Assembly (NCBI GenBank): GCA_002368355.1
Contig: AP018281.1
Span: forward strand, 2,356,001 to 2,420,000
DNA length: 64,000 nucleotides
Reading direction: 5' to 3'
From: Chondrocystis sp. NIES-4102
GTDB taxonomy: Bacteria; Cyanobacteriota; Cyanobacteriia; Cyanobacteriales; Xenococcaceae
This document shows positions 40,798 to 57,140 of the stretch, one piece after another. The position numbers were made by a program, and so were the translations under genes. Numbering within the stretch: position 1 is the stretch's first letter; each line of letters begins with the position of its first letter. Under the pieces are notes generated by a model. The model saw only the letters and a list, made by a program, of their open reading frames with translations, did no database searches and had not been told where the DNA came from.

Positions 40798-40869
40798 CTA
40801 TTTATACGATTATCTAAGTTTAATAATCTTGGCGTATAGAAAAATTATAATTACCACAAGATCATAGTT

Positions 40870-41085
40870 CAATAACCCCTAGCTGCCCTAACAGGACGAG
40901 GTTGGGGAGTGTGGGATTTAGCCCACCGTAACTATTGAATAGCGCACTGAGCCTTAGCCTAACACATACTCTCAAGTATTTCGCTAGCTTGAGTTATCTA
41001 TAACCCTTCTGATTCAAGGGGCTTCTAAAGGGAGGACATTTTGGTTAAGGTGCGCGAAGCGACTAACACACTTTAAATAGGATTA
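40870..41085 (+). ncRNA. Probable omega RNA upstream of the IsrB-like gene
   Basis: About 215 bp of GC-richer, structured DNA directly before the IsrB-like start. Visible stems are GTGGG/CCCAC (40911-40925 region), CTCAAG/CTTGAG (40971-40976 with 40988-40993) and CCCTT/AAGGG (about 41002-41021). IscB and IsrB nucleases use an omega RNA encoded immediately 5' of the gene, with the guide at its 5' end, so place and structure fit. The ends cannot be fixed by eye. Confidence 0.5.
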
Positions 41086-41092
41086 TCTCCAA

Positions 41093-41744
41093 ATGCAAAG
41101 AGTACCAGTAGTAAATCCAGATGGCAGTCAAGCTATGCCAACCAAATGCTCTAAAGCTCGAAAATTATTACGAGAGGGTAAAGCAGTAGGCAAATGGAAC
41201 AAGCTAGGAATTTATTATATTCAGCTAACTTTTGAGCCATCAGGAAGATTCACGCAACCTATTGTCGTAGGTCTTGACCCTGGAAAAAAGTATAGTGGTA
41301 TGGCAATAGTAAGCAAAAAGATTACTTTGTTTACCGCTCACCTGTTTCTACCTTTTGAAACTGTTAAAAAACGTATGGAGCAGCGTCTCATGATGCGTCG
41401 TTTTAGAAGAGGTAGAAGGATTAACCGTAACCTGGCTATTAAGTTCAGAGCGCACCGTCAATGTAGATTTGCTAATCGCAGAAACAAAAAAGTCGCTCCA
41501 AGTATACGCTCAAATAGGCAGCTAGAAATCTCAGTTATTTCTCTGCTTAGCAAAATCTACCCGATTAGTAATATCGTTTTTGAATATGTCAAGGCGGATG
41601 TCGATTTAACCTCTGGTAGAAAAAAAGCACGTTCGGGCAAAGGTTTTTCGCCTGTTATCGTTGGTCAATCTTGGGCTATAGACCAGTTAAACAAGATTGC
41701 TCTTGTAGTCAAAAAGCTAGGTTGGCAAACTTCTAACCTTAGAA
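41093..41744 (+). CDS. IsrB-like RNA-guided nuclease, exon 1
   Basis: First exon (217 codons plus one base) of an IsrB/RRXRR-type nuclease. It has an N-terminal PLMP-like domain (VPVVNPDGSQAMP, KARKLLREGKA), RuvC-I with D62 (VVGLDPGKKYSG), an arginine-rich bridge helix (RLMMRRFRRGRR, about 98-130) and RuvC-II with E164 (NIVFEYVKAD). There is no HNH insert after RuvC-II, as in IsrB and unlike IscB. Unspliced reading ends at a stop in the intron at 41776. With exon 2 the protein has 402 residues. Related proteins nick or cut DNA guided by omega RNA. Confidence 0.82.
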
Positions 41745-44407
41745 GTGCGATTCGTTCTTACGAAACCTATATATAGGGGGATGTAAGGCATTGGTTGAGT
41801 AAGTTTATATGACTGGAGTTCGCACTTTAATCCTCAACCAATGATAACTAAATAATCTTATTGGTGAGTAACCTTATTGAGCTATAAAGCAAAGAAAATA
41901 AGGGAGATTCTTAATCTCTTAAAACACACAAGTCCAATCCGTCAGACACAGACGTGAAAGCAAAACCTCTGCGGTAGAGAGTGGTCTTCAATCCGTAAAG
42001 CGAGGGGACGGCGGAAAATTACTACTAGCCTAATGTGGTAATCCGTTGGCAAGTTCTCATGATGAACAAGGACTAAGGAGTTGACTGAATTGTCCCCAGT
42101 TAGAACTAGCGGAAAGGCTTATACGCTAGGAGACCTAAAAAGGCATTATCAAACGGTATATCCTTTGATAAACAGGTGATAACCAGTTTCTTATGAGTTA
42201 TCTGTGTTACCTAAAAAGTGGCAAATAGACTCCCATCTAAAAGAACAAAACAAAGATTATTTGGAACGAAGTAAATCAATTGTTTCTCTCAGGCAAAAGG
42301 TCGAAAACCTGAGTAATCAACCAAGATGTAACATCTAGTTTCATTAGCTAGGAAATAATTGATAAAGATAGAGTCAGAAGCTAAAGACTTCTTGTAATAA
42401 GAAGTATATGCTGACAGACTCACGATGAAACGGAAGATAGGGACATAAGTAGAAGTTAATAAGTTATGGACTATGTTGAATTAATACAACAAGAGTATGA
42501 ATGGGCAGACCTACCCTGGAAGAAATTCGAGAAGGTTCTGTATAAGCTTCAAAAACGTATCTATCAAGCGTCCATTCGTGGCAATGTCAAAAACATTAAA
42601 CGACTCCAAAAATTACTAATTAACTCCAGAAGTGCAAAATTAATATCGGTTCGTAAAGTCTCCCAAGATAACCAGGGTGCAAAAACGGCAGGTGTGGACG
42701 GAAAAAAAATGCTGACCCCAAAGCAACGTTTTGAACTGGTTGATAAAATCAACTTGGGTTCTAAAGTGTCTCCTGTTAGAAGGGTATGGATTCCCAAACC
42801 AGAAAAACAAGAGACAAGACCTTTAGGAATACCTACGATAAAAGACCGAGCAATACAATGCCTTGTCAAATTAGCTCTTGAGCCAGAATGGGAAGCAAAG
42901 TTCGAGAAAAACAGCTATGGTTTTCGACCTGGACGCTCATGCCATGATGCTATTGCAGCAATTTTCGATGCAACAAGATATAAACCAAAATATGTTCTTG
43001 ATGCTGATATCAGTCAATGTTTCGACTGTATCAATCACAGAAAATTACTACAAAAGCTAAAAACATTTCCAAAGCTTCGTAAACAAATACGAGCCTGGCT
43101 AAAGGCAGGAGTCTGGGATAAAGAAACACTTTTCATGACTAATAAAGGAGTACCTCAAGGCGGGGTATTAAGCCCCTTACTTGCAAATATTGCCTTGCAT
43201 GGAATGGAGGAGTATATCAAAGACTTTGCGGAAACTCAAAACATCACCTATCCGAATGGAGGATGTATGAGTAAACAACGTAAAAGAGACTCAATATCTC
43301 TAATTAGATACGCAGACGACTTAGTTGTACTCCACCACAAACATGACATAGTTGTGAAAAGCAAAGAAAAGCTCTCAAACTGGCTAAAAGAGATAGGACT
43401 AGAGTTAAAACCCAGTAAAACTCGAATTACACACACCTTACATAATTGTGGGGCTGAAAAAAAAGGATTCGACTTTTTAGGATTTAACGTCCAACAATAT
43501 ACCGTTGGAAAATACAACTGCGGAAAGTGTAGAGGAAAATCACTAGGCTTTAAAACCTTAATCAAGCCTAGCAAGAAAAGCATCCTAAGACACTATAAAC
43601 AACTGGCAAAAATAATTACCGAAGCCAAATCTTGGAAACAAGAAGCATTAATAGGTAAACTTAACCCTATTATTCGCGGATGGTGTAATTATTTTTCCAT
43701 AGGGGTGTCAAAGAAAGTTTTTCAAAAAATGGATTGGTTAATCTGGTGGAAACTCTTTAAATGGGGAATAAGTAGGCATAATAATAAAGGAAAGGATTGG
43801 TGTAAAAACAAATACTTCCAAAAATATGAAACTTACAACATAAACGAAGGTAAAATCATCAGTAAAAATTGGATATTCGCGACAACCAAAGATGGAAATA
43901 TTCATAATTGGCTACTTTCACATGGTGACACAAAAATCATCCATTATACGAAAGTAAAAAGCGATGTCAGTCCTTACGATGGAAACTTAATTTACTGGAG
44001 TTCCCGTATGGGAAAAAATCCCCTAATGCCATCCCGCAAAGCAAAATTGCTTAAAACCCAAAAAGGAAAATGCAACTGGTGCGGTTTAACGTTCAGACAA
44101 GATGATGTATTAGAAGTAGACCACGTTATCCCAAAATCAAAAGGTGGAACGGATTACTATAAAAACTTGCAGGTACTTCATCGACATTGCCATGATAAAA
44201 AGACATCAGCCGACGGATCACACGAACCTACCTTTAAACCAGTAAAACTCCCTCAAGGATGGTATTGGGAAGGAGGAATGTTGATTACATAGGGTCTAAT
44301 AGCGTATTGATGACAACAACCGTTTTATTGAGGAGCGCATTGAAGTGAAAGTTTCATGATGCGTTTTGTAGAGCAGTAGGTGGGGTAACTCACTTACTGA
44401 CTTTAAT
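41745..44407 (+). mobile_element. Group II intron with RT-maturase-HNH ORF
   Basis: The 5' end is GTGCG at 41745. Near the 3' end, domain V (about 44333-44370) has stems AGCGCAT/ATGCGTT and TGAAGT/GTTTCA closed by a GAAA tetraloop. Domain VI follows: CAGTAGGTGGG pairs with CTCACTTACTG, with A44400 bulged over a 5-bp basal stem. The intron ends in AT at 44407, which puts the branch A eight bases from the end, as expected. Removing 41745-44407 rejoins the nuclease exons in frame. The ORF lies in domain IV. Domains I-III (41745-42465) are structured but not resolved here. Confidence 0.87.
42466..44292 (+). CDS. ltrA: Group II intron reverse transcriptase/maturase with HNH domain
   Basis: A 608-residue intron-encoded protein. 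The RT domain has RPLGIPTIKDRAIQ, NSYGFRPGRSCHDAI, GVPQGGVLSPLLANI and the catalytic YADD at residues 282-285. The maturase (X) domain follows (IRGWCNYFS), then a C-terminal HNH endonuclease: CNWCG, VLEVDHVIPKSKGG, NLQVLHRHCHDKK. All parts look intact, so splicing and retrohoming should be possible. It starts 721 bp inside the intron. Confidence 0.95.
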   Translation: MDYVELIQQEYEWADLPWKKFEKVLYKLQKRIYQASIRGNVKNIKRLQKLLINSRSAKLISVRKVSQDNQGAKTAGVDGKKMLTPKQRFELVDKINLGSKVSPVRRVWIPKPEKQETRPLGIPTIKDRAIQCLVKLALEPEWEAKFEKNSYGFRPGRSCHDAIAAIFDATRYKPKYVLDADISQCFDCINHRKLLQKLKTFPKLRKQIRAWLKAGVWDKETLFMTNKGVPQGGVLSPLLANIALHGMEEYIKDFAETQNITYPNGGCMSKQRKRDSISLIRYADDLVVLHHKHDIVVKSKEKLSNWLKEIGLELKPSKTRITHTLHNCGAEKKGFDFLGFNVQQYTVGKYNCGKCRGKSLGFKTLIKPSKKSILRHYKQLAKIITEAKSWKQEALIGKLNPIIRGWCNYFSIGVSKKVFQKMDWLIWWKLFKWGISRHNNKGKDWCKNKYFQKYETYNINEGKIISKNWIFATTKDGNIHNWLLSHGDTKIIHYTKVKSDVSPYDGNLIYWSSRMGKNPLMPSRKAKLLKTQKGKCNWCGLTFRQDDVLEVDHVIPKSKGGTDYYKNLQVLHRHCHDKKTSADGSHEPTFKPVKLPQGWYWEGGMLIT

Positions 44408-44964
44408 AACATCTGAGACTAGAAAAGCAAAAAACTCAAAAAGGTGATGCAATTCCTTTTACTCATGCCACTGATGCCATAAGTTTGGCAGCTACTCAAT
44501 TTATTGACTACTTACCTTTTGAGAATTCAGGTGGAAGGGGTCATTGTTGGCAGGGAGAATTAACTGTTACTGATGCCCCATTTTTCGTAATTAAAAGACC
44601 TCCTATTAGTAGAAGACAATTACATTTAATGTTGTCCTCAAAAGGTGGAGTTAGACGTAAATACGGTGGCACAACTACTAGACATGGTTTCCGAAAAGGA
44701 GATTATGTTGAAGCAGTCAAGGCTGGAGTTAAATATCGAGGGTGGTGCAGTGGAGATACAGCATCTCAAGTCAGTATCTCGAATGCACACTGGAAGCGTA
44801 TCGGTCAGTTTACTGCATCCAAGGTTAAATTGTTGCAACGGTCAACAGGATTAATTTGTACACAGCAAGCAAATTTCAGGCGTTGCAGTTTGATTACTGG
44901 TGTTCGTTTCCTCCCTTCCCAGGCAAGCCGAGGAAGGAGTATCCACTCAAACATTTTTCGATGA
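44408..44964 (+). CDS. IsrB-like RNA-guided nuclease, exon 2
   Basis: Second exon of the split nuclease. Joined after exon 1 it reads NLR-KHLRLEKQKTQKGDAI, a smooth family-like sequence. It carries RuvC-III (H237 and D240 in THATDAIS) and a C-terminal domain with RPPISRRQLHLM, GVRRKYGGTTTRHGFRKGD and WKRIGQFTASKVKLLQRSTGLIC (given in parts), which in this family contacts the target-adjacent DNA. The final about 35 residues after STGLIC look non-conserved. Alone, this stretch could only start at an internal TTG (44485), which would lack the first RuvC-III residues. Confidence 0.82.
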
Positions 44965-45023
44965 ACTTATTTAAAATGGGAATTGGATTTAATTAATTAT
45001 GGCGATCGCGAATATACTACTAA

Positions 45024-53184: not shown

Positions 53185-53858
53185 ATGGCAAAAAGGTCGC
53201 TACAAGCATCGCTAGCAGGAGTTAAACAAGCAAAAAAAGCTTTCGATAATCTTGGTTGGACTCAAGACAACTTGGCAGCAGAAGTAAATTTAAAAACTCG
53301 TCAGCCAGTCTGGAGATTTTTTACTAATCGTCCCATTGAACGTTATACTTTTATCGAAATTTGTTCAGTCTTAGAACTAAACTGGCGAGAAATAGCCGAA
53401 AATCCGCCATCAGAGGGTATAGACTCAGAAGCAGGACAACTAATTAGTATAGAAGCCTTAGTTAAACAGGTGCGATCGCAACGCCGAGATAAGGTGCAAC
53501 AGCAGTGTGGCATATTACATTTATTAGATACAAATTATCCTGTAGCGATCGAGGATATTTATGTTGAAATCAATATTTCCCAAGAGATTACTAGTCGGCA
53601 GTGGATAGAAATTACTAATCTAGAATATCCCACCTGCAAAGAATTAAATCAAACCGCTTCAAAAACAATACCAGGCATTGAAGCAATTACAGATCAATCA
53701 AAACTAAGGATATTAGGACAACCAGGATCTGGTAAAACTACTTTTCTACAATATCTTGCCATTGAGTGTAATCGAGGTAACTTTGCATCTAACCTGATTC
53801 CTATTTTTATTAGTTTAAGAGATTTTGCTGACGAGTCTAAAAAAACAGGCGACTTTAG
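53185..53858 (+). pseudogene. NACHT NTPase gene, 5' part (interrupted by IS)
   Basis: Codons 1-224 plus two bases of a NACHT-type STAND ATPase. An N-terminal helix-turn-helix-like domain (NLGWTQDNLAAEVNLKTRQP, FIEICSVLELNWREIAE) occupies residues about 20-72. The NACHT P-loop is ILGQPGSGKTTFLQYLA (about 176-192). The insertion cuts after GDF at the first two bases of a serine codon. In the present DNA the frame runs on to a stop at 53907. Related bacterial NACHT proteins act in phage defence; the HTH-NACHT layout is common in cyanobacteria. Confidence 0.87.
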
Positions 53859-53921
53859 CCAAACCACGAGAAGCCCAGCATTCTGGCGCAGCCGAATGTC
53901 TGGATGAATCGTGGGCTGGGT

Positions 53922-54332
53922 CTAGCTTGGCGTATTTTGATTCTCGATATAATTTTTTAATACAGATATTGTAACTCCACCACAAGAAGCTATAAAGTAA
54001 GACTCATTCCAAAATACTTTTTTCCAATAAATTTTGTTTATTTCTTCTGGAAATTCTTGTCTCAATCTCCTGCTGGTAACTGATTTAATATTGCCTATGA
54101 ATTTGGGTAGTTCCATTTGTGGGTAGTACTGAAATAACAAATGTATATGATTGTCTTCTCCATTGAACTCAATCACTTTGCAATCCCATTTTTCACACAA
54201 TTCAGTTATCACGTCTCTCAATCTGCTAATCATTTCGCCAGTTAAAACCTTTTTTCTATACTTGGTTGTCAAAACTAAATGAGCTTTTAAATCAGATACA
54301 GACCTGGCACTAGAAACAAAATCATTCCTCAT
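53922..54332 (-). CDS. tnpA: IS200/IS605 TnpA Y1 transposase
   Basis: A 136-residue HUH single-strand transposase. The HUH motif is NHIHLLF (H62, H64), and the catalytic tyrosine is probably Y128 (VLKNYIENQ). It excises and inserts single-stranded element DNA using end hairpins. It is divergent from tnpB with 46 bp between starts. Length is typical. Confidence 0.94.
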   Translation of the reverse strand: MRNDFVSSARSVSDLKAHLVLTTKYRKKVLTGEMISRLRDVITELCEKWDCKVIEFNGEDNHIHLLFQYYPQMELPKFIGNIKSVTSRRLRQEFPEEINKIYWKKVFWNESYFIASCGGVTISVLKNYIENQNTPS

Positions 54333-54378
54333 TCTTCTTGTGCTACAATAACTGTATCTAATTATAACAACGCTGACT

Positions 54379-55764
54379 TTGATTTACAATTATCAGTACC
54401 GACTAAAGCCCACTACAGAACACAAGCTAGTACTCAATGACTGGCTTCGGATTTGTCAGTATTGGTATAATCGACAGCTTGGCGAGCGGTTTGACTGGTG
54501 GGAACAAAATCGTAGCTACATTGATAGATGTCTTTTGGTATGTCATTTGCCTGAACTCAAGGACAAACCTGAGTTTTACGGACAGAAAAAGCAGTTACCC
54601 GTAATCAAACAAGATTTGGTTATTGTAGGCTGGAGTGGTGAATTGCTAGATTTTAACTCTGTGCCATCTCAAACACTACAAGAGGTGTGCAAAAGAGTCA
54701 AACTAGCTTTTGAGCGGTTCATTGCTGGTGATTCAAAAGGAAAGCGTAGTGGAAAACCAAGATATAAAAACACTGCTCGTTTTAGGTCAATAGTGTTTGA
54801 CTCCTTCAAACTACATTCTTGTTCTGTTGGAGGCAAATGGCTTTATTTATCATTACCTAAAATTGGCATAATCAATGTGCGCCATCATCGTCCACTGCCT
54901 AATGGTGCAGTATTAAAGCAAGCACAGATAATCAAAAAAAGTGACGGATGGTATATTAATCTACGGCTTCAAGATGATTCTGTACCTGACTTCAAATCAA
55001 ATATTACTCCCAGTTGGAATAATTCCTTGGGGATGGATGCAGTACTGCATGAAGATGATTATCTGGCTACCAGCGAAGGTGTTAAATTGCCTAGCCTTAA
55101 GTCTTTTCGCTCCTCACGAGACAAGCTAGCCAAGGTATCAAAACGCAAATCTACCAAAAAGAAAGGTAGTAAATCAAGACGAAAACTAGCAAAACGGGAA
55201 GCAAAACTTCACTCCTCAATAGCTAGAGCTAGAAAAGATCACGCTTACAATACTGCCCACGCGCTACTGAAAACGGGCAAAAAAGTTTTCTTTCATGAAA
55301 AGCTCAATCTTGTTGGGTTGAGTCGAAGGAATAAAGCAAAAACTGATACTAATGGTAAATTTTTACCTAATGGGCAGTCGGCGAAATCAGGATTAAATAA
55401 GTCTTGGGCTGATGCTGCTTTTGGTCAGTTTTTCAACATACTGAAGTTCAAAGCTGAAAAAGCTGGGGCTTTGGTAATACCTGTAAATCCACAATACACC
55501 TCAATGTTGTTGCCGTACAAAGATGAGTTTGTCTTTACTGATTGCGGTATTCGGGAGTATTGGGATGAAGAATTAAACCTTTTGATTGATAGAGACGTTT
55601 CAGCCTCTATCAATGTCAAGAGAGTGGGGCTGGACTTGTTCCCCACTATAAAACGCTGTAAAGGGAATCCAGTAGTGATTGCATCTACTACTAATAGTAC
55701 CTTAAAGGAAGTTCTCTCTACCCTCCGAGGTTTGGAGAAGCCAGCGTTATACTCGAAGAGTTAA
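54379..55764 (+). CDS. tnpB: TnpB-family RNA-guided nuclease without the usual zinc finger
   Basis: A 461-residue TnpB with TTG start at 54379. It has a helical N-domain (IYNYQYRLKPTTEHK, YWYNRQLGERFDWW) and a split RuvC: D220 (SLGMDAVLHEDD), E307 (VFFHEKLNL) and D406 (DRDVSASINV). In most TnpB a four-cysteine zinc finger lies between the last two; here the stretch (YTSMLLPYKDEFVFTDCGIR) has one cysteine, so the finger is degenerate or replaced. Such nucleases cut the empty donor site and promote element retention. Confidence 0.88.
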   Translation: MIYNYQYRLKPTTEHKLVLNDWLRICQYWYNRQLGERFDWWEQNRSYIDRCLLVCHLPELKDKPEFYGQKKQLPVIKQDLVIVGWSGELLDFNSVPSQTLQEVCKRVKLAFERFIAGDSKGKRSGKPRYKNTARFRSIVFDSFKLHSCSVGGKWLYLSLPKIGIINVRHHRPLPNGAVLKQAQIIKKSDGWYINLRLQDDSVPDFKSNITPSWNNSLGMDAVLHEDDYLATSEGVKLPSLKSFRSSRDKLAKVSKRKSTKKKGSKSRRKLAKREAKLHSSIARARKDHAYNTAHALLKTGKKVFFHEKLNLVGLSRRNKAKTDTNGKFLPNGQSAKSGLNKSWADAAFGQFFNILKFKAEKAGALVIPVNPQYTSMLLPYKDEFVFTDCGIREYWDEELNLLIDRDVSASINVKRVGLDLFPTIKRCKGNPVVIASTTNSTLKEVLSTLRGLEKPALYSKS

Positions 55765-55780
55765 CGTCTGGAGAAGTCAC
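55640..55780 (+). ncRNA. Probable TnpB guide RNA (reRNA) at the element right end
   Basis: TnpB guide RNAs come from the 3' end of tnpB plus the element's right end, and the guide is the adjoining host DNA. Here that scaffold would span roughly 55640-55780, with short stems such as CTCC/GGAG at about 55720-55740. The guide would begin at 55781, inside the NACHT gene. The 5' limit is a guess. Confidence 0.45.
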
Positions 55781-57140
55781 CTTATTAAACTACATTGAGG
55801 CTGAGTTGTTAGATTGTGGAATTTTAGCAAGCGATACAGTTGAAATATTGATCGAAGGCAAAATTTTACTATTGCTAGATGGACTAGATGAAGTGTTAGA
55901 TCACGATAAACATATAATTAGCCAGGAAATAGTCAGATTTTCCGAAAAATATAGTAAAAATATCTTGATCGTTACCTGTCGCACCCCAGCCAAAACTAAC
56001 ACCCTCAGACGTTTTAGCGATATCGAAATCACACCCTTTACTCAACGGCAAATTATCGCTTTTACCCACAAGTGGTTTGCCATATTTACTAAAAATCATC
56101 TTTCTAATCAGGATATCGGCAGACAATTTTTAGCACAACTAGACTTACCTGAAAATTTGCCCTTGCGCCGACTGGTTGCCACGCCTTTATTTTTACATCT
56201 TGCTTGTTGGGTATTCCATCGTCAAGAACAATTTCCTAGTAAAAAAGCTGAATTTTATAAACAATGCCTGTATTTGCTTTTAAACAAATGGGACACAATT
56301 AGAGGAATTAAACGAGATGAAGTTTATCAAGGGTTTAGTTTGCCACAGAAGCTTAAATTAATTAGTATGCTTGCAACTAAAACTTTTGAAAAAGGGGTAT
56401 ACTTCTTTGAACAATCAGCTATCCAAGATTATATTAGTGACTTTATTTGCAATTTACCCAACGCTCCAAGTGATCCTGAAGAATTAGAATATGATAGCGA
56501 AATAGTTTTAAAAGAGATAGAGTTGCAACATGGAATAATAGTAGAAAGAGTACAAGGAGTTTTCTCTTTTTCCTGTTTAACTTTTCAAGAATATTTTATA
56601 GCTCGTAAAATAGCTCTTTATGAACATTTACAGTCATTATCAGTTTTAAAAAGTTTAGTCACTCATATAAGTGATCCACGCTGGCGCGAAGTGTTTATCT
56701 TAACCGTTACTATGTTGCGTAGTGCCGATCGCTTAATCTCTTTAATGAAGCAGGAAATTGATAATCTAGTGGCATCAGATGCTTATGTGCAAGAGTTTTT
56801 AACTTGGGCTAGTCAGACATATTTAGTAACATTGCAACCGACTTTAAGTACTACTAGTTTCGCCTTTACTCAAATTCAAGCTCAAATGTCTTCCCCTCAG
56901 CAAGAAATGATCTTGCAATCATGGTGGCAAAATGATCATCTTTCTTTGTCTGAGCGATTAGAAACAGTGGCTTCTGTTCATCGTAGTATAGAGTCTGACT
57001 GGAATTTTAGTTTAGAACAACAGCAAATTTTAGAACGATACTATAATGCTAACAAGCTACTAATCGACTGTCTAAATAGTAATTGTCAAGTTACCTTTGC
57101 ATTACGTAGGGAAATTGAAACAGCTTTACTATTGTTTTAG
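55781..57140 (+). pseudogene. NACHT NTPase gene, 3' part
   Basis: Continuation of the interrupted gene: the frame resumes as LLNYIEAELLDCGI at 55782. It holds Walker B (KILLLLDGLDEVLD), the sensor region (NILIVTCRTP), the winged-helix part of NACHT (LRRLVATPLFLHLACWVF) and the SFSCLTFQEYFIARKI motif before a C-terminal helical domain of the NCH2 type. There is no decay beyond the insertion. The restored protein would have 677 residues. A separate internal start for this fragment is unlikely to give an active ATPase. Confidence 0.87.

What the first reader, a model, noticed from the sequence alone, without database searches (positions are those of the whole stretch)
41093..44964. IsrB-like RNA-guided nuclease gene split by a group II intron, with exons that rejoin exactly
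Seen: exon 1 (41093-41744) carries PLMP, RuvC-I (D62), bridge helix and RuvC-II (E164); exon 2 (44408-44964) carries RuvC-III (H237, D240) and the C-terminal domain. Between them lies an intron starting GTGCG and ending AT, with domain V and a domain VI whose bulged A is eight bases from the 3' end. Removing it gives NLR-KHLRLEKQ in frame and a 402-residue protein. Known: IscB/IsrB are ancestors of Cas9. Inference: nuclease production depends on ribozyme splicing by the intron's own maturase, a nested parasite arrangement that may throttle or time nuclease activity.
Basis: partly seen in the sequence, partly recalled or inferred. Interest (0 to 1): 0.8.

Follow-up and report, generated by a model that had tools for sequence, protein, structure and literature searches.

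The report
Mobile ribozyme intron inside IsrB nickase
In a cyanobacterium, a gene for an RNA-guided DNA-nicking enzyme of the kind related to the ancestor of Cas9 is interrupted by a recently arrived self-splicing mobile intron, and related genomes show such introns cutting other copies of this gene or even its guide RNA.

Summary
Exons 41093-41744 and 44408-44964 join in frame into a 402-residue IsrB that aligns in one stretch, across the junction, to solved DtIsrB (E 8e-56). The 2,663-base insert is a group II intron with matching domains V-VI and an RT/maturase/HNH protein. It occurs five times in the genome, four copies identical, at unrelated sites sharing a 5'-exon motif: its ends are exact, it arrived recently, and IsrB is one target among several. 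Nothing shows that it times or throttles IsrB, which should be a nickase.

The wider pattern is more interesting. IsrB is found in 66 of 195 genomes of the order. Of 61 other IsrB loci inspected (a set enriched for broken matches), nine carry a group II intron in or directly before isrB. Two genomes of different families share one site inside the RuvC-I codons. In two other genomes the intron cuts the omega-RNA; joining its halves in a script restores an RNA 91-93% identical to uninterrupted relatives, with 50 of 50 consensus pairs. Both parts of an OMEGA system can thus depend on splicing. Introns in transposase genes are known; this I did not find described.

The parts
40847..40866 (+). predicted guide region (flank just outside the conserved left end); position approximate
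   Evidence: Homology to the three closest upstream stretches starts at 40864-40867. The 20-mer has one exact match in the genome, itself, and one with 3 mismatches. Guide assignment is inferred from IsrB/IscB locus architecture.
40867..41092 (+). omega-RNA scaffold (conserved structured RNA upstream of the ORF)
   Evidence: Noncoding, up to 87.5% identical to relatives. Consensus fold of 13 of 49 upstream stretches, chosen for similarity: 30 pairs, 368 of 388 cells paired, 24 pairs with double changes; slid controls 5-10, 50 column shuffles at most 1. No Rfam match up to E 5.
41093..41744 (+). IsrB exon 1: PLMP, RuvC-I (D62), bridge helix, RuvC-II (E164), HNH-linker equivalent
   Evidence: (PF14239 RRXRR E 4.7e-46). 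Domain names follow PMC9581776.
41745..44407 (+). mobile group II intron, 2663 nt, 5' GTGCG, 3' AT
   Evidence: Five copies in own genome with the same ends; RF00029.
42045..42050 (+). candidate EBS2 (GUUGGC) pairing with the IBS2 of the five insertion sites
   Evidence: Best summed pairing over the five sites; EBS1 not resolved. Tentative.
42466..44292 (+). intron-encoded protein: reverse transcriptase (YADD), maturase, HNH endonuclease, 608 aa
   Evidence: TIGR04416 338 bits, cut-off 300.
44331..44407 (+). intron domains V and VI with branch-point A
44408..44964 (+). IsrB exon 2: RuvC-III (H237, D240) and TAM-interacting domain; C-terminal tail out of register with relatives
44910..44965 (+). 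right end of the element: hairpin followed by ...TTTTTCGATGA
   Evidence: Homology to the five closest relatives ends at 44965. Fold of this 3' region in 6 sequences (window included): 23 pairs, 127 of 138 cells paired, 8 pairs with double changes.

Best explanation
A non-autonomous OMEGA element (omega-RNA from about 40867, isrB ORF, hairpin right end at about 44965) was recently entered by a mobile group II intron. The intron RNP found a match to its target motif (5' exon ...CTAACCTTAGAA, 3' exon A) at isrB codon 218 and reverse-spliced there. Transcription should now give a precursor from which the intron splices with its own maturase, rejoining the exons into a catalytically complete IsrB nickase; unspliced RNA gives only a 227-residue fragment without RuvC-III and the TAM-interacting domain. 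In this locus the omega-RNA lies upstream and is uncut. The intron gains a dispensable, mobile harbour; IsrB pays with splicing-limited expression. Shown by sequence: anatomy, exact ends, multi-copy spread, collinearity with intact relatives, recurrence of introns at IsrB loci. Inferred: splicing in vivo, IsrB activity, cost and benefit.
For: In-frame rejoining and one-stretch alignment to DtIsrB across the junction. Uninterrupted collinear relatives in the same genus and order (66 of 195 genomes have a match, closest 70-78% identical). dN 0.17-0.22 against dS 1.2-2.0 for the five closest of 12 relatives compared. Intron core present. Five copies, four identical, at sites sharing a 5'-exon motif, one in frame inside a TPS-domain gene; such spread normally needs spliced intron RNP (established knowledge of retrohoming). 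Covarying omega-RNA and element ends.
Against: No transcript data. Identical copies mean the insertion is young, so open exons do not prove splicing. EBS1 was not identified. The C-terminal frame differs from relatives. RmInt1, a comparable intron in a transposase gene, ligates under 1% of exons in vivo (PMC4238363, section 11).
Confidence: 0.8

Rival explanations
1. The insertion has in effect silenced IsrB: the intron reacts poorly or not at all in this exon context, and the locus is on its way to decay.
For: Recent insertion; low exon ligation of RmInt1 in a dispensable host (PMC4238363); decayed cases exist: L114, whose intron begins CTGCG, and L129, which joins two different sites.
Against: The recognised core parts are intact in the window copy, and the same RNA has evidently been mobile, which needs splicing.
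Confidence: 0.25
2. The intron is an evolved valve: its splicing, for example with temperature or Mg2+, times or limits IsrB nicking to the benefit of host or element.
For: Proposed for RmInt1 in ISRm2011-2 (PMC4238363); introns recur at IsrB loci; two families share one RuvC-I site.
Against: The same intron sits unchanged at unrelated sites; 52 of 61 other IsrB loci inspected show no intron.
Confidence: 0.07
3. The intron lineage in the window is a specialist that homes to isrB.
For: The isrB site has CTAACCTTAGAA, as has one other site.
Against: IsrB is 1 of 5 sites; six related introns fetched (L120-L125) have no IsrB match in their flanks.
Confidence: 0.04
4. The intron brings an HNH domain to an HNH-less IsrB and so repeats the IsrB-to-IscB transition.
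For: The intron protein's HNH resembles the HNH part of the IscB model (NF040563 positions 183-239, E 3.6e-11).
Against: The HNH is in a separate ORF of the intron with its own start; the site (codon 218) is about 32 residues after the HNH-linker equivalent (residues ~166-185, my reading of the alignment with PMC9581776).
Confidence: 0.01

Closest known systems
IsrB / DtIsrB OMEGA nickase (PDB 8dmb; PMC9581776, passages read)
   Same: PLMP, split RuvC, bridge helix, no HNH, C-terminal TAM-interacting domain, large upstream omega-RNA; residues 2-370 aligned, E 8e-56
   Different: ORF split by a group II intron; last ~28 residues unmatched; omega-RNA not recognised by Rfam
RmInt1 group II intron in the ISRm2011-2 transposase gene (PMC4238363, abstract and section 11 read)
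   Same: mobile group II intron with maturase inside a protein gene of another mobile element; full-length host protein needs splicing
   Different: host here is an RNA-guided nickase gene (and in relatives its guide RNA); the intron protein carries HNH; the window intron is not tied to one element
Thermosynechococcus elongatus introns (PMC2882425, passages read)
   Same: cyanobacterial, multi-copy, some insert at a conserved site in an insertion sequence or in another intron
   Different: no RNA-guided nuclease host in the passages I saw
IStrons (PMC4227781, listing and start of abstract only)
   Same: ribozyme intron joined to an insertion sequence
   Different: there a group I intron is part of the IS element itself; here a group II intron sits inside the nuclease gene or omega-RNA

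Membership tests
IsrB | PLMP plus RuvC-I/II/III with catalytic D, E, H/D | tested here: met
   only in the joined frame
IsrB | no HNH domain in the nuclease ORF | tested here: met
   RRXRR only in exon 1 and the joined protein, nothing in exon 2
IscB (considered) | NCBIfam IscB equivalog cut-off | tested here: not met
   NF040563 95-98 bits, cut-off 175: not filed as IscB
IsrB | omega-RNA directly upstream of the ORF | tested here: met
   (conservation, structure and covariation; no Rfam model match)
IsrB | omega-RNA-guided nicking next to NTGA | not testable with these tools
   Right end ...CGATGA is compatible with an NTGA motif; no assay
mobile group II intron | GUGYG...AY ends, domains V and VI with bulged A | tested here: met
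mobile group II intron | RT-maturase(-endonuclease) protein | tested here: met
mobile group II intron | several copies at sites with a shared IBS-like motif | tested here: met
mobile group II intron | EBS1/IBS1 and EBS2/IBS2 pairing | tested here: inconclusive
   EBS2 candidate, EBS1 unresolved
mobile group II intron | splicing in vivo | not testable with these tools
   No transcripts available

The most novel reading that the evidence does not exclude
In cyanobacteria, group II introns repeatedly colonise OMEGA loci and split either the nuclease ORF (in two families at the same RuvC-I codons) or the guide RNA scaffold itself, so that an RNA-guided nuclease system becomes conditional on ribozyme splicing of its protein or of its omega-RNA.
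Probability: 0.5. Interest if true: 0.7.

Novelty: new variant of a known kind. Interest (0 to 1): 0.55.

Why it matters
IsrB is a nickase relative of the ancestor of Cas9. A natural intron at the RuvC-I codons, between RuvC-II and RuvC-III, or in the omega-RNA makes production of the enzyme or its guide depend on a ribozyme, in a nest of intron, nuclease and transposon. Ten intron-bearing IsrB loci in six genomes make it directly testable whether splicing limits RNA-guided nuclease dosage, whether a spliced omega-RNA works, and whether catalytic-motif DNA is a conserved homing target. The window case alone is a clean but expected example of a mobile intron in a mobile gene.

Tried and rejected
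Empty site: the upstream neighbour gene has a match in 12 of 13 genomes of the genus. In the 11 loci compared, homology stops near 40811, and the two downstream neighbour proteins have no match in the 1,500 bases or less that each locus holds. No empty chromosomal site was found.

Guide target: the predicted 20-mer has one exact match (itself) and one with three mismatches; no target inferred.

Named relatives: the genome contigs protein scan confirmed no relative. A RuvC-I junction pattern gave three contigs; one, Microseira wollei, holds IsrB and the intron protein, the other two had no match and are taken as chance.

50 had an open 3' exon of at least 60 codons, 47 not, 2 were too short. 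By blastp none of the 50 is IsrB; I read 6 as TnpB (Pfam supports 5; L139 had no match) and, by eye, 6 as nested reverse transcriptases. The list is top-scoring hits only and does not include the window intron; 5' exons were not read. So IsrB does not stand out among introns at large, which counts against a preference for it. IsrB's share of the genome would give about 0.005 (G000), 0.016 (G091), 0.003 (G099) and 0.025 (G154) hits by chance (the script used 22 introns for G000 where 19 matched, 0.004 with 19). That null ignores selection against hits in needed genes, and intron counts for G091 and G154 are capped.

It raised my odds for the novel case from 0.35 to 0.5 and the interest from 0.45 to 0.55.

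Aulosira laxa plasmid fragment starting at IsrB residue 214: no group II match. G066 contig ending near residue 214: no intron start after it. HNH delivery: rejected by position.
Full report
Observation. The reading frames are as described. Exon 1 (41093-41744) and exon 2 (44408-44964) join to a 402-residue protein, with D62, E164, H237 and D240 in place. Against all solved chains the joined protein matches DtIsrB (8dmb) in one stretch, residues 2-370, E 8e-56, through the junction at residue 217; the eight IscB-type chains listed have their best stretch within residues 3-177. Pfam gives RRXRR for exon 1 and the joined protein and no HNH. The IscB equivalog model scores 95-98 bits against a cut-off of 175. 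PADLOC has no model for either exon; the intron protein matches reverse-transcriptase models there. So the gene is IsrB-like and expected to be a nickase.

Intron. 41745-44407 begins GTGCG and ends AT. RF00029 matches its last 77 bases over the whole model (46 bits, cut-off 40). Domains V-VI fold 6.5 standard deviations better than shuffles, with an unpaired A eight bases from the end. Its 608-residue protein has RVT_N, RVT_1, GIIM and HNH.

The intron occurs five times in the 5.0-Mb genome. Four copies are identical over 2,663 bases; the one on contig C5 is a base shorter, about 99.9% identical, with its protein match broken in two. The 5' exons share a motif: TTCTAACCTTAGAA here, AGCTAACCTTAGAA, AGCTAACAATAGCA, TGCTAATAGTAGGA and AGGTAACATAAACA elsewhere; the 3' exons begin with A, though for C5 only one base is held. 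One other copy lies in frame in an 895-residue TPS-domain frame. One has no spanning frame of 60 codons, one only an antisense frame, and one lies at a contig end. A candidate EBS2 (42045-42050) pairs best with the five; EBS1 was not resolved. The insertion is therefore recent, exact and not specific for isrB.

The OMEGA element. Upstream, homology to the closest relatives starts sharply near 40867 and reaches 87.5% identity in noncoding sequence. A consensus fold of 13 of 49 upstream stretches, picked by similarity, has 30 pairs, 368 of 388 cells paired and 24 pairs with changes on both sides. Sliding one side by 1-3 columns leaves 98-173 of 376 cells and 5-10 such pairs; 50 column shuffles reach at most 1. 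The structure comes from the same alignment, which favours it over the slid versions. Downstream, homology to the five closest relatives ends at ...TTTTTCGATGA after a hairpin. No ORF of 80 residues lies in the element apart from the exon frames, the intron protein and two antisense frames over the latter, so no transposase.

Close relatives end their frame near residue 378; here a one-base difference near codon 373 gives an unmatched tail. Before that, dN is 0.17-0.22 and dS 1.2-2.0 against the five closest of 12 compared; for the seven others dN is 0.36-0.44 and dS is 1.8-4.5 or not computable. The protein was under constraint, though this predates the intron.

Recurrence. In the order, 66 of 195 genomes hold IsrB at E <= 1e-30, with 166 matches (in most genomes at most 9 candidates were scored). 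I examined 61 other IsrB loci: 29 best-of-genome matches (L012-L040) and 32 stretches fetched mainly because the match was partial (the 33rd, L137, is IscB-type). Introns were sought by tblastn with the intron protein, by Rfam on 52 of the 61, two of them as refetches L114 and L115 (L032-L040 were not scanned by Rfam), and by my own domain V-VI model on all 61. Seven of the loci found were among that model's 12 training rows and match it by construction; L035 and L129 were not and score 73 and 69 bits. Nine of 61 carry a group II intron in or directly before isrB; in the 29 unselected loci it is 2 (L024, L035). With the window this is 10 loci in 6 genomes. Loci end 1,500 bases from the match or at contig ends, so introns further upstream could be missed. 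A weak, cut-off match in L050 (21 bits) lies away from its isrB and is not counted.

In the ORF. L126 (G099, another family) has a 2,585-nt intron at exactly the same codon boundary, DPGKN|YSG. The two introns match only in pieces (68% over 640 bases in the longest), and the second exons are about 65% identical. L059/L114 has one two codons later whose first base is C, not G, so it is probably decayed. L128 (G154) has it near codon 28; with the Rfam end the frame is off by one, and it is in frame only if the intron is taken one base longer, my inference.

Before the ORF. In G154, L127 and L035 have the intron 3' end directly before TCTCTTTATG / TCTCTTAATG, at the isrB start; L127's 5' side is ...CTCCAAGGATTA, L035's 5' side was not fetched. 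L129 joins that 5' side to the codon-28 3' side. The intron of L128 is 97.0% and 90.3% identical to those of L129 and L127, while the exon-2 sides are 82.3% and 75.4%, as expected if introns moved between already diverged isrB copies.

In the omega-RNA. In G048 (L024/L263; Crinalium epipsammum PCC 9333 by the length of a plasmid) a 2,888-nt intron lies between ...GGGGATTGCTAGAAC and CAATTCTGGCGACG..., about 180 bases before an uninterrupted isrB; its protein is 52% identical to the window's. The halves joined in a script are 90.9% identical over 231 bases, with one gap, to the uninterrupted RNA of L025. In G032 (L049/L264) a 2,153-nt intron lies in the 3' part of the RNA; the joined halves are 92.7% identical over 232 bases to L031. 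A consensus of 11 uninterrupted relatives has 50 pairs, 36 with double changes; the joined RNAs of G048 and G032 keep 50 of 50 each. In G048 14 of these pairs span the junction, in G032 none. The 5' ends rest on a GTGYG next to omega-RNA sequence. The isrB of G032 also has a frame break near residue 245.

Wider survey. The own genome has 19 domain V-VI matches. My script printed 16 of 19, one of them (L262) on the wrong strand. The 3'-exon frames over 60 codons are a reverse transcriptase, a TnpB, IsrB, the TPS gene and one 436-residue frame that I did not search. The TnpB case, on C2, appears split five bases after the nearest in-frame ATG by a different intron, whose 5' end is the one GTGCGA candidate in range. 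In the order-wide sample 6 of 50 open 3' exons look like TnpB (Pfam supports 5) and none is IsrB. The bias, if real, may be towards mobile genes in general.

Mechanism. Splicing would rejoin the window's exons; without it translation ends ten codons into the intron. In G048 splicing would be needed to close a hairpin of the guide RNA. Whether splicing is efficient is unknown. In RmInt1 under 1% of exons are ligated and its authors propose a limit on the host IS (PMC4238363, abstract and section 11). That is a fair analogy, but for an intron that has just arrived, with the same sequence at other sites, it is not evidence of regulation.

Literature. Searches for group II intron with IscB (15 of 15 listed), IsrB with intron (12 of 12), group II intron with TnpB (20 of 20), HEARO with intron (10 of 24 listed) and TnpB/intron/splicing/IStron (15 of 49 listed) (open PubMed Central only) showed no title or abstract start describing an IsrB gene or omega-RNA split by a group II intron. 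I did not read the listed papers in full; of one on circular omega-RNAs I saw 12 passages, none on this (PMC12558985). This is weak evidence of absence. Nesting of group II introns in insertion sequences and other introns is documented in a cyanobacterium (PMC2882425, passages).

Noticed in passing
window 53185-57140: An IS200/605-type pair (136-aa TnpA-like ORF 53922-54332 minus, TnpB 54379-55764 plus; read by eye, TnpB place also) separates two ORFs that look like halves of one NACHT-type NTPase gene (by eye). The genome has 12 matches of equal score to this TnpB type. It might supply transposase in trans to the IsrB element.
   Followed up: no
L192 / L245 (G000:C2:25080-25156): A TnpB gene in the same genome appears split by a different group II intron five bases after the nearest in-frame ATG.
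   Followed up: partly
L263:1402-4289 (G048) and L264 (G032): Group II introns inside the omega-RNA of IsrB loci; joined halves keep 50 of 50 consensus pairs. This may deserve a study of its own.
   Followed up: partly
L137:1792-2006 (G000:C3): HEARO RNA (RF02033, 139 bits) beside a short RRXRR-like frame: a separate IscB-type locus in the same genome.
   Followed up: no
L127, L128, L129 (G154): Two intron sites in isrB copies of one genome and a third copy that joins the 5' side of one site to the 3' side of the other, as if introns had recombined and deleted the start of the gene.
   Followed up: partly
L139, L153, L156, L192: Several introns have their 3' end just before or at the start of a TnpB frame.
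   Followed up: partly
L151, L155, L159, L183, L184, L232: Introns whose 3' exon is another group II intron's reverse transcriptase, i.e. nested introns (read by eye).
   Followed up: no
L115:8805-8901: TPP riboswitch (67.6 bits) about 400 bases upstream of the split isrB, on the opposite strand.
   Followed up: no
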